This document shows, piece after piece, positions 1,373 to 44,126 of a stretch of DNA of 51,079 nt. The notes under the pieces were generated by a model. That model was not told where the DNA came from. It worked only from the letters and a program-made list of their open reading frames with translations, and did no database searches. Origin of the DNA: Mycoplasmataceae bacterium. GTDB taxonomy: Bacteria > Bacillota_I > Bacilli_A > Mycoplasmatales > Mycoplasmoidaceae. The position numbers and the translations under genes were made by a program. Where the stretch lies: assembly GCA_031281465.1 (NCBI GenBank), contig JAITFH010000015.1, positions 1-51,079 on the forward strand. The letters are read 5' to 3'. Within the stretch, counting starts at the first letter, position 1; every line of letters starts with the position of its first letter.

Positions 1373-1975
1373 TTACGATTTAAGCTTATTAAGTTTAATT
1401 ACCCTCTCAAGTTTCTCAGTACCTTCATCAACTTTCTCGTTAGTTTTCTTTTGAGTTGTTATTAGAACCTTTTGAGTTTCTACAACTCCATCGACTTTAT
1501 TTTCAAGTGCATCTAATCTCTTGTCTGTTTTCTTTTGAGCTAAGACTTGAGCCTTTTGAGTTTTTATAACTCCATCAACCTTTTTCTCGATGTAACTATT
1601 AAACTCCGCTTGTTTTGCAAAACCAACATCAACCTTTTCGGTAAGAGTTTTAAGTTGTTTTAGAATTAGTTTTAACATTTTTGGTTTTCTAGGTGGTGGC
1701 GGTGGTGGAGGTTCTTCACCATCCTCATCAGGATCGATTTCCTTTGGCAACGCCTTATACCTCATTATAAGCTCAGTAGGGTTAGAGTACTTATCAGCAA
1801 GTTTGAGCAGTACCGATTTGATTGATTTCCGAACTTTAGGGGGAAGTTCGGAATAAGTTAGTATTTCTTCGATAATACTTTCTATTATTGTTTTGACTAT
1901 GCTCTGTATCTTCACTTGGTTGAAAGATTTGATTGAAGCTACAAGCATAGTTTTTTTAATTCGTTTGATTGACAT
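1373..1975 (-). CDS. Coiled-coil protein with proline-rich linker; first of three related proteins
   Basis: A 200-residue soluble protein. The N-terminal third is basic and helical. Around residues 90-100 lies an acidic segment followed by seven prolines and RKPK. The C-terminal half is a predicted coiled coil with two copies of a KVDGV-x-TQK...QKKT unit, and it ends in EKLERVIKLNKLKS. That tail is shared with the proteins at 42194-42595 and 44132-44518. The unit resembles the DUF16/UPF0134 coiled-coil proteins of Mycoplasma pneumoniae, but this is a visual likeness only. Upstream lies the CGCGG element (minus strand, 2013-2046) and a strong AGGAGG at 2001-2006. That ribosome site is 25 bases from the ATG chosen here and only 4 bases from an in-frame ATC (1994-1996). 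The true start may therefore be seven codons earlier at a non-ATG codon. Confidence 0.75.
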   Translation of the reverse strand: MSIKRIKKTMLVASIKSFNQVKIQSIVKTIIESIIEEILTYSELPPKVRKSIKSVLLKLADKYSNPTELIMRYKALPKEIDPDEDGEEPPPPPPPRKPKMLKLILKQLKTLTEKVDVGFAKQAEFNSYIEKKVDGVIKTQKAQVLAQKKTDKRLDALENKVDGVVETQKVLITTQKKTNEKVDEGTEKLERVIKLNKLKS

Positions 1976-2012: not shown

Positions 2013-2046
2013 TATAATTACCGCGTTTTTAGCAAAACTCTTAAAA
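2013..2046 (-). promoter_or_regulatory. CGCGG promoter element, copy A
   Basis: Minus strand: TTTTAAG, nine variable bases, then AAAAACGCGGTAAT followed by TATA. It lies just upstream of the GGAGG of the coiled-coil gene. Three other copies in the window share both blocks at identical spacing. The TTTTAAG and TAATTA boxes could act as -35 and -10. Confidence 0.7.
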
Positions 2047-2256: not shown

Positions 2257-2374
2257 CCCTCCATTTTTCAAAAACCGTGATTTTTTCGCTCAACAAAAAA
2301 ATTTTTTTTCGGTTGTAAAATTGAAATTTTTTAAGTAAATGGCCAAAAACGCGGTAATATATATAGATGGAGGG
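2257..2374 (+). repeat. Upstream cassette B with complementary ends (CCCTCCAT ... ATGGAGGG)
   Basis: The segment starts with CCCTCCAT (2257-2264) and ends with the Shine-Dalgarno ATGGAGGG (2367-2374), an 8-base perfect complement. Between them are an A/T palindrome flanked by CAAC/GTTG (2291-2315) and the CGCGG element. Related segments lie at 42658-42760 and 43999-44126. In each, the left end changes together with the Shine-Dalgarno so that pairing is kept. Confidence 0.55.
2329..2364 (+). promoter_or_regulatory. CGCGG promoter element, copy B
   Basis: TTTTAAG at 2329-2335, then nine bases, then AAAAACGCGGTAAT and ATATATA, ending a few bases before the GGAGG of the double-glycine peptide gene. 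The block AAAAACGCGGTAAT is identical in all four copies. Confidence 0.75.
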
Positions 2375-2378
2375 CAAA

Positions 2379-2681
2379 ATGACAAAACTTACAAACGAAA
2401 ACAAACAAAACATTAACGGAGGAAAGATGAGTGCAACTTTTCTCTGAACAGCCGTTACTGGTGGTTCATTGCTGTTTAGTACTGTATTCGACGCAATCGT
2501 CGGAATAGTACAAATGTGTGTCCCTCAAAAGAATCAAGAGGTTACTACCACTTATTCTTCTGATGGAACAAGTACAAGAACAGTTAGAGAAACTACTGGT
2601 GGGCATTCATCTTATTCGTCTGGACAAGGTTCGCACATTAAAGCGAATAATAATCCGATGTATTCGAGTATATATTTCTAG
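2379..2681 (+). CDS. Small secreted peptide precursor with double-glycine (bacteriocin-type) leader
   Basis: ATG at 2379 follows a strong ATGGAGGG ribosome site. With TGA as Trp the product is 100 residues. The first 15, MTKLTNENKQNINGG, resemble a double-glycine leader as in class II bacteriocins and peptide pheromones: Gly at -1 and -2, Ile at -4, Leu at -12, Thr at -11. Position -7 is Lys where a hydrophobic residue is usual. After the leader comes a small-residue-rich hydrophobic segment (SATFLWTAVTGGSLLF onward to about residue 47) with internal GG, then one Cys and a Ser/Gly/Thr-rich polar tail. Such leaders are cut by the C39 peptidase domain of ABC exporters; no such transporter is in the window. 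The neighbour on the left is a divergent coiled-coil gene with the same promoter element. The coding call is good; the secreted-peptide role is inference. Confidence 0.7.
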
Positions 2682-42657: not shown

Positions 42658-42760
42658 GACCTCCAATAGTATATATTACCGCGTTTTTGGTCATTTACTT
42701 AAAAAATTTCAATTTTACAACCGAAAAAAAATTTTTTCGTTAAAGCAAAAAATGGAGGTC
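42658..42760 (-). repeat. Upstream cassette C with complementary ends
   Basis: On the minus strand it starts GACCTCCA (42753-42760) and ends TGGAGGTC (42658-42665), an exact 8-base complement. It contains the A/T palindrome CGAAAAAATTTTTTTTCG and the CGCGG element. Confidence 0.55.
42671..42704 (-). promoter_or_regulatory. CGCGG promoter element, copy C
   Basis: Minus strand TTTTAAG, nine bases, AAAAACGCGGTAAT, ATATAC. It differs from copies B and D by only one or two bases over more than 30. Confidence 0.75.
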
Positions 42761-43998: not shown

Positions 43999-44126
43999 AC
44001 CTCCATTTTTCGCTTCAAAGAAAAATTTTTTTCTTGCAACTTAATATATTACATATATTACTTTCCATTTTTAAAAAATTTTTTAAGTAAATGGCCAAAA
44101 ACGCGGTAATATATACTATTGGAGGT
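43999..44126 (+). repeat. Upstream cassette D with complementary ends
   Basis: It begins ACCTCCA (43999-44005) and ends TGGAGGT (44120-44126). It contains AAGAAAAATTTTTTTCTT (44018-44035), an A/T palindrome at the same relative place as in cassettes B and C, and the CGCGG element. Confidence 0.55.
44081..44115 (+). promoter_or_regulatory. CGCGG promoter element, copy D
   Basis: TTTTAAG at 44081-44087, nine bases, AAAAACGCGGTAAT, then ATATA. The strong TTGGAGGTC ribosome site follows at once, seven bases before ATG 44132. Confidence 0.75.

What the first reader, a model, noticed from the sequence alone, without database searches (positions are those of the whole stretch)
2379..2681. Bacteriocin-type double-glycine leader peptide in a mollicute
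The gene codes for MTKLTNENKQNINGG followed by a hydrophobic small-residue segment containing GG and a Ser/Gly-rich tail. Gly at -1/-2, Ile at -4 and Leu at -12 fit leaders cut by C39-peptidase ABC exporters. Ribosomal secreted peptides of this sort are, to my knowledge, hardly described in mycoplasmas. UGA coding a Trp in the mature part means the peptide would be truncated in standard-code relatives. Position -7 is Lys, a weak point.
Basis: partly seen in the sequence, partly recalled or inferred. Interest (0 to 1): 0.82.

Follow-up and report, generated by a model that had tools for sequence, protein, structure and literature searches.

The report
Mycoplasma double-glycine peptide in recombination regulon
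A small mycoplasma gene encodes a peptide with a cut-and-export tag; it belongs to a family found across the mycoplasma order that looks like the missing cargo of these bacteria's peptide exporter, and here it is switched on together with genes for DNA uptake and recombination.

Summary
The ORF is real (2379-2681 +, 100 aa, SD GGAGGG, one UGA-Trp) and its double-glycine leader is not chance. The peptide is a divergent relative of MPN313/MG220 (RrlA), the M. genitalium protein reported as needed for sigma20-driven recombination. A profile built without it finds it alone in the window (E 2e-13). Relatives occur in 235 of 320 genomes of the order. In 67 leaders Gly-1 is invariant, Gly-2 is 61/67, and -4 and -12 are hydrophobic or Thr. 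The genome has one C39 exporter gene. It carries the same 76-nt promoter block as the peptide, a block also found before recA, ruvAB and comEC. In one related genome the C39 exporter and two such peptides form one operon. Published work (PMC6609329) says no double-glycine candidates were known for mycoplasma C39 exporters; this family fills that gap. The leader reading is therefore supported. "Bacteriocin" is not: conservation, regulon and RrlA genetics favour a signal or effector of a recombination/DNA-uptake state, which remains inferred. An oddity: the exporter's ATPase domain has lost Walker A in the genus members examined. I could not read the rrlA papers, so part may already be known.

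The parts
2379..2681 (+). CDS of the double-glycine precursor (RrlA/MPN313-like), 100 aa, code 4, stop included
   Evidence: leave-one-out HMM; order-wide hit
2379..2423 (+). leader MTKLTNENKQNINGG; predicted C39 cut after Gly15
   Evidence: leader consensus of 67 relatives; cut inferred
2424..2678 (+). predicted mature peptide, 85 aa: hydrophobic helix (about residues 16-47), Ser/Gly/Thr-rich linker, C-terminal KANNNPMYSS stretch shared in part with the closest relative L041 (KANMNPKYSN)
   Evidence: low-confidence single-sequence AlphaFold model, helix 16-47, pLDDT 62.8
2445..2447 (+). TGA codon read as Trp23, an invariant Trp in the genus
2369..2374 (+). Shine-Dalgarno GGAGGG
   Evidence: read directly; similar sequences in the 24 aligned sites
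2348..2359 (+). core of regulon promoter element AACGCGGTAATA
   Evidence: 16 exact copies in the genome, 0 of the reversed control; 0.12 expected from composition
2290..2365 (+). extended promoter block nearly identical to the one upstream of the OB-fold gene/C39 exporter on contig C29
   Evidence: score 71; other genomes' exporter upstreams at most 13
2016..2027 (-). divergent second-class copy of the element (AACGCGGTAATT) before the neighbouring gene
1373..1975 (-). divergent regulon neighbour: 200-aa proline-rich/coiled-coil protein of a dispersed family (DUF16-like, weak)

Best explanation
The gene encodes the precursor of a small exported peptide of the RrlA/MPN313 superfamily. The 15-residue leader is recognised and cut after Gly14-Gly15 by the genome's single C39-peptidase exporter. 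The 85-residue product is delivered to the membrane or outside, where its N-terminal hydrophobic helix and C-terminal tail act. Peptide and exporter are made together with RecA, RuvAB, ComEC, a metallo-beta-lactamase-fold lipoprotein and an OB-fold protein from one promoter type, so the peptide is part of an inducible recombination/DNA-uptake programme. By analogy with M. genitalium, where RrlA is needed for sigma20 activation, I think it most likely acts as a secreted or membrane-displayed signal or effector that keeps that programme on. Shown here: gene reality, family, conserved leader, exporter presence, shared promoter, operon linkage in other genomes. Inferred: cleavage, export, inducibility, and the signalling role (about 45% within this explanation).
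For: Homology to MPN313/MG220: weak NCBIfam hit; leave-one-out HMM E 1.8e-13; M. genitalium G37 (contig 580,076 bp) MG220 reads MYKLEKAQAKQVVGG/LSFW... in the same register. Leader conserved in 67 sequences. Family in 235 of 320 genomes of the order by two profiles, the two clades linked by hhalign, 95.8%, E 7e-9. C39 in 282 of 320; peptide in 227 of 282 C39-positive and 8 of 38 C39-negative genomes, 6 of the 8 incomplete MAGs. Operon of C39 exporter, small membrane protein and two double-glycine peptides in G306; the same gene order in G448, one of only two positives outside the order in a 295-genome phylum sample. Same promoter for peptide and exporter here, and own-genome exporter upstream is the closest match in 7 of 14 genomes. 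Regulon: recA, ruvAB, ComEC, MBL lipoprotein, OB-fold/C39. RrlA needed for sigma20 activation: PMC9262362. An f5 relative reaches the NCBIfam class IIb bacteriocin leader model cut-off (TIGR03949).
Against: P0001 scores 16.3 bits against the MPN313 cut-off of 100, and its C-terminal tail differs from the YxRMSPFPxRSA form of most relatives. The genus' C39 exporters have no Walker A or signature motif, so ATP-driven export by that protein alone is doubtful, though the C39 Cys/His/Asp are kept. No receptor was identified. A clear MG428 homologue was not found in this genome, only another sigma-70-family protein. The co-occurrence test is not corrected for phylogeny. No expression or cleavage data exist here.
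Confidence: 0.75

Rival explanations
1. It is a class II-type bacteriocin (or one of a two-peptide pair) made during the recombination state to lyse sister or rival cells and release DNA, a fratricide-like role.
For: Leader and small-residue hydrophobic helix resemble class II bacteriocins; an f5 relative reaches the TIGR03949 lactobin/cerein cut-off, one f5/f7 member weakly hits TIGR01847; tandem pairs in several genomes and exporter plus two-peptide operons in G306 and G448.
Against: Family under purifying selection with a conserved C-terminal tail in most genus members, unlike fast-diverging bacteriocins; single copy here; no immunity-like gene next to it in the window; RrlA loss gives a recombination defect in M. 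genitalium (PMC9262362).
Confidence: 0.2
2. It is a membrane-bound intracellular accessory of the sigma factor; the GG is a helix-packing or turn motif, not a cleavage site, and the C39 link is coincidental.
For: RrlA is listed as a transmembrane sigma accessory protein (PMC9262362); in at least ten genus members the peptide gene lies directly upstream of rpoD; the exporter's ATPase domain is degenerate in the genus.
Against: GG sits at a fixed distance from the start with -4, -11 and -12 positions as in C39 leaders; exporter operons; shared exporter promoter; co-occurrence with C39.
Confidence: 0.1
3. It is a structural part of a DNA-uptake or surface apparatus (a mini-pilin or DNA-binding anchor) that C39 processes before assembly, rather than a signal.
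For: Shared promoter with ComEC, RecA and an MBL-fold lipoprotein; some C39 proteins process pilus or fibre subunits (NCBIfam FilB and FapD models hit the G306 exporter weakly).
Against: Very small, no sequence relation to pilins found; RrlA is reported to act on sigma20 activity itself.
Confidence: 0.15

Closest known systems
RrlA (MG220) of M. genitalium / MPN313 family (NCBIfam NF045747)
   Same: Same length class, same leader register ending in GG, hydrophobic helix after the leader, regulon with recA and ruvAB
   Different: P0001 is far below the family cut-off and has another C-terminal tail; promoter sequence differs; the double-glycine leader is not part of the description of RrlA that I could read
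Double-glycine peptides exported by C39 ABC transporters (class II bacteriocins, ComC-type pheromones of streptococci)
   Same: Leader with hydrophobic -4 and -12, GG at -2/-1, C39 exporter, coupling to DNA-uptake and recombination genes as in streptococcal competence (the last from general knowledge)
   Different: Lys at -7 instead of a hydrophobic residue; larger mature part with a membrane-type helix; no known receptor; exporter with a degenerate ATPase domain in this genus
Mbov_0121 family peptidase domain-containing ABC transporter (NCBIfam NF045998), incl. MG390
   Same: The genome's exporter aligns over C39 and membrane domains (E 1e-45)
   Different: Nucleotide-binding domain not matched, no Walker A; score below the 500-bit cut-off
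sigma20 (MG428) regulon of M. genitalium
   Same: recA, ruvAB and an rrlA-like gene under one shared promoter type
   Different: Here the promoter element is long and contains AACGCGGTAATA; ComEC and coiled-coil repeat genes are included; the sigma factor is not identified

Membership tests
Double-glycine (C39-processed) peptide precursors | Short N-terminal leader ending in GG with hydrophobic residues near -4, -7 and -12 | tested here: met
   -4 and -12 met and conserved, -7 is Lys in this family
Double-glycine (C39-processed) peptide precursors | Cognate C39 exporter in the same genome, genetically linked | tested here: met
   one C39 gene; same promoter, not adjacent; operon linkage in G306 and G448
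Double-glycine (C39-processed) peptide precursors | Exporter has catalytic Cys/His/Asp and a working ATPase domain | tested here: inconclusive
   C39 residues aligned and kept; Walker A and signature absent
Double-glycine (C39-processed) peptide precursors | Cleavage after GG and export shown | not testable with these tools
   Needs biochemistry or mass spectrometry
MPN313/RrlA (NF045747) | Score above curated cut-off (100 bits) | tested here: not met
   16.3 bits; so filed as a divergent relative, not a member of the equivalog
MPN313/RrlA (NF045747) | Sequence homology to the family | tested here: met
   Leave-one-out HMM E 1.8e-13; the model includes MG220 itself
Class II bacteriocin | Antimicrobial activity | not testable with these tools
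   -
Class II bacteriocin | Match to a bacteriocin family model and an adjacent immunity gene | tested here: not met
   No Pfam or NCBIfam bacteriocin hit for P0001; neighbours are hisS and a coiled-coil gene
sigma20-type recombination regulon | Shared promoter with recA and ruvAB | tested here: met
sigma20-type recombination regulon | MG428-like sigma factor in the genome | tested here: inconclusive
   No direct hit; an additional sigma-70-family protein on C68

The most novel reading that the evidence does not exclude
Mycoplasmas have a peptide-pheromone system: RrlA-type double-glycine peptides, matured by the order's near-universal C39 exporter, are cell-to-cell signals that switch on a sigma-factor-controlled recombination and DNA-uptake state, a mollicute counterpart of streptococcal competence control; in this genus the exporter has become an ATP-independent membrane peptidase.
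Probability: 0.3. Interest if true: 0.92.

Novelty: new variant of a known kind. Interest (0 to 1): 0.8.

Why it matters
C39 exporters are kept in 282 of 320 sampled genomes of the mycoplasma order, and one is retained in the minimal cell JCVI-syn3A, yet no double-glycine cargo was known, to the point that a lipoyl-peptide uptake role was proposed instead (PMC6609329). A family found in about three quarters of the order's genomes, conserved in leader and linked to the exporter, gives a direct candidate. Because one member is RrlA, which controls recombination and thereby antigenic variation in a human pathogen, it becomes testable whether that switch is driven by an exported peptide.

Tried and rejected
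Bacteriocin as primary label: rejected for lack of immunity gene, conservation and regulon. Chance leader: rejected by family conservation. Homology of the small membrane proteins next to the exporters (MG389, G306, G448): BLASTP gave nothing, so only the gene order is similar. Single-sequence MG428 search in this genome: negative. First alignment too diverse for the search for related loci. The papers describing rrlA and the sigma20 regulon (10.1093/dnares/dsy011, 10.1093/nar/gkv422) are not held. Promoter sharing between peptide and exporter is not seen in all genomes (7 of 14 are best matches, some short and AT-rich, one a tie). Searches for papers on double-glycine peptides in mollicutes gave only PMC6609329 as relevant.

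Full report
Observation. The frame 2379-2681 (+) reads MTKLTNENKQNINGG KMSATFLWTAVTGGSLLFSTVFDAIVGIVQMCVPQKNQEVTTTYSSDGTSTRTVRETTGGHSSYSSGQGSHIKANNNPMYSSIYF with one TGA read as Trp23. A GGAGGG stands just before the ATG. An in-frame ATG at 2367 lies next to that site, and relatives align from 2379. The gene lies between a divergent 200-aa gene and hisS on the opposite strand.

Family. Pfam gives nothing. NCBIfam gives a weak hit to MPN313 (E 0.009). Searching MPN313 over relatives brings out small proteins in most members of the genus, typically starting MxxLxxxxKKxxxGG and going on with a hydrophobic stretch; M1, Gly15 and Trp23 are invariant in 23 sequences, Gly14 is Ala in three. Order-wide, the strongest MPN313 hits include a 580,076-bp genome, the length of M. 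genitalium G37 (my identification by length), whose MG220 starts MYKLEKAQAKQVVGGLSFW. MG220 is RrlA (PMC9262362). A profile of 32 relatives without P0001 finds P0001 as the only significant hit among 1385 frames of the window. With all 33, 114 of 320 genomes match. A second profile from two further families of the order adds more, 198 of 320, and the two profiles are related by hhalign over leader and helix. Together 235 of 320 genomes have a hit. Of twenty sampled loci, mostly from the second group, nineteen carry a GG leader and one PG, including genomes with the lengths of M. agalactiae PG2, M. bovis PG45 and M. penetrans HF-2 (identification by length is mine). A phylum-wide sample of 295 genomes gave two positives outside the order; one of them, G448, is a C39 exporter (693 aa, full Walker A), a small membrane protein and two double-glycine peptides in a row, an independent check that the profile recognises C39 cargo.

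Leader. In 67 sequences position -1 is always Gly, -2 Gly in 61, -4 I/T/L/V in 64, -7 Lys in 45, -8 Glu in 27, -11 S/T in 39 and -12 L/M/I in 64. This is the consensus of C39 leaders as I know it, with Lys at -7 as a family trait. Close pairs of relatives have dN/dS 0.06-0.18. A single-sequence AlphaFold model is of low confidence (pLDDT 62.8) and shows a helix over residues 16-47, right after the leader.

Exporter. The genome has one C39 gene, on contig C29 (PF03412 E 1.3e-15). It aligns to the NCBIfam mycoplasmal exporter NF045998 over residues 5-442. The catalytic Cys, His and Asp align with those of MG390; the nucleotide-binding domain has no Walker A or signature, and the same is true for the other members of this genus examined and for G306, while MG390 has GQNGSGKS and LSSGQ. 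C39 is found in 282 of 320 genomes; 227 of these and 8 of the 38 without it have a peptide (Fisher odds 15, not corrected for phylogeny; six of the eight are incomplete MAGs). In G306 the exporter, a 124-aa membrane protein and two double-glycine peptides abut one another.

Regulon. AACGCGGTAATA occurs 16 times exactly in the genome; the reversed control 0 times; composition predicts 0.12. With near matches, 24 sites share AAATTTTTTAAGTAAATGGCCAAAAACGCGGTAATATATATA and lie just before genes. Downstream genes include the peptide; recA followed by a metallo-beta-lactamase-fold lipoprotein (PF00753); ruvA-ruvB; an OB-fold protein (weak, PF01336 E 0.014) followed by the C39 exporter; ComEC (PF03772 E 1.7e-17); lipoproteins; and a family of proline-rich coiled-coil proteins. 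The peptide and exporter promoters match over 76 nt; in G018 the match is 80 nt with a different sequence, and in 7 of 14 genomes the peptide's upstream is most similar to its own genome's exporter upstream (one a tie, some short). In M. genitalium the MG220 and MG390 upstreams share ATTAATA(A)GACAAAA, which I did not test statistically.

Reading. What it called a bacteriocin-type curiosity is one member of an order-wide family that is the likely cargo of the mycoplasma C39 exporters, for which PMC6609329 reports no known double-glycine candidate. Function: RrlA is needed for sigma20 activation and recombination in M. genitalium (PMC9262362), and here the peptide shares its promoter with recombination and DNA-uptake genes. 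I therefore favour a secreted or membrane-displayed signal or effector of that state; a fratricidal bacteriocin, a structural uptake component and an uncleaved sigma accessory remain possible. The degenerate ATPase domain is the main difficulty: either a partner supplies ATP hydrolysis, or the protein works as a membrane peptidase for a peptide that inserts by itself.

Membership. It meets the testable defining features of double-glycine precursors. It fails the MPN313 cut-off, so I call it a divergent relative of RrlA, not RrlA. It does not meet the bacteriocin criteria tested.

Limits. The rrlA and sigma20 papers were not available, so an earlier mention of the leader cannot be excluded. The sigma factor of this regulon is not identified. 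Tallies were transcribed from the tables and agree with their totals.

Noticed in passing
G000:C29:3572-5530 (L157 3572-5530) and L053-L077: C39 exporters of this genus keep the peptidase residues but have lost Walker A and the ABC signature, while MG390 keeps them.
   Followed up: partly
window 2016-2027 (-), 42674-42685 (-), 44100-44111 (+); L122, L126, L131, L132 and others: The regulon promoter also precedes a dispersed family of proline-rich and coiled-coil proteins (weakly DUF16-like), sometimes in divergent pairs; they may be a variable repeat family activated with recombination.
   Followed up: partly
L159 1983-2951 (-): A metallo-beta-lactamase-fold lipoprotein overlaps the end of recA in the same operon; with a separate ComEC channel gene under the same promoter (L015) it may be a split-off DNA-uptake nuclease.
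   Followed up: partly
L217 946-1194 and 1298-2872; also G005, G007, G014, G016, G019, G025, G026, G034, G035: In at least ten genus members the peptide gene lies directly upstream of, or within about 1 kb of, rpoD on the same strand.
   Followed up: partly
L216 991-2091 (G000:C68): A second sigma-70-family protein (366 aa, lysine-rich tail) that could be the regulon's sigma factor.
   Followed up: partly
L223 (G448:C4:10000-14800) and L222: Outside the order, a C39 exporter, a small membrane protein and two double-glycine peptides in one run; looks like a two-peptide class II bacteriocin locus.
   Followed up: yes
L011 and L014: Two genes with nearly the same N-terminus and the same promoter, one a 44-aa stub and the other a long protein, as if one copy were truncated or a recombination donor.
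   Followed up: no
L140, L141, L143, L149, L156: Several genomes carry two or three different double-glycine peptide genes in tandem.
   Followed up: partly
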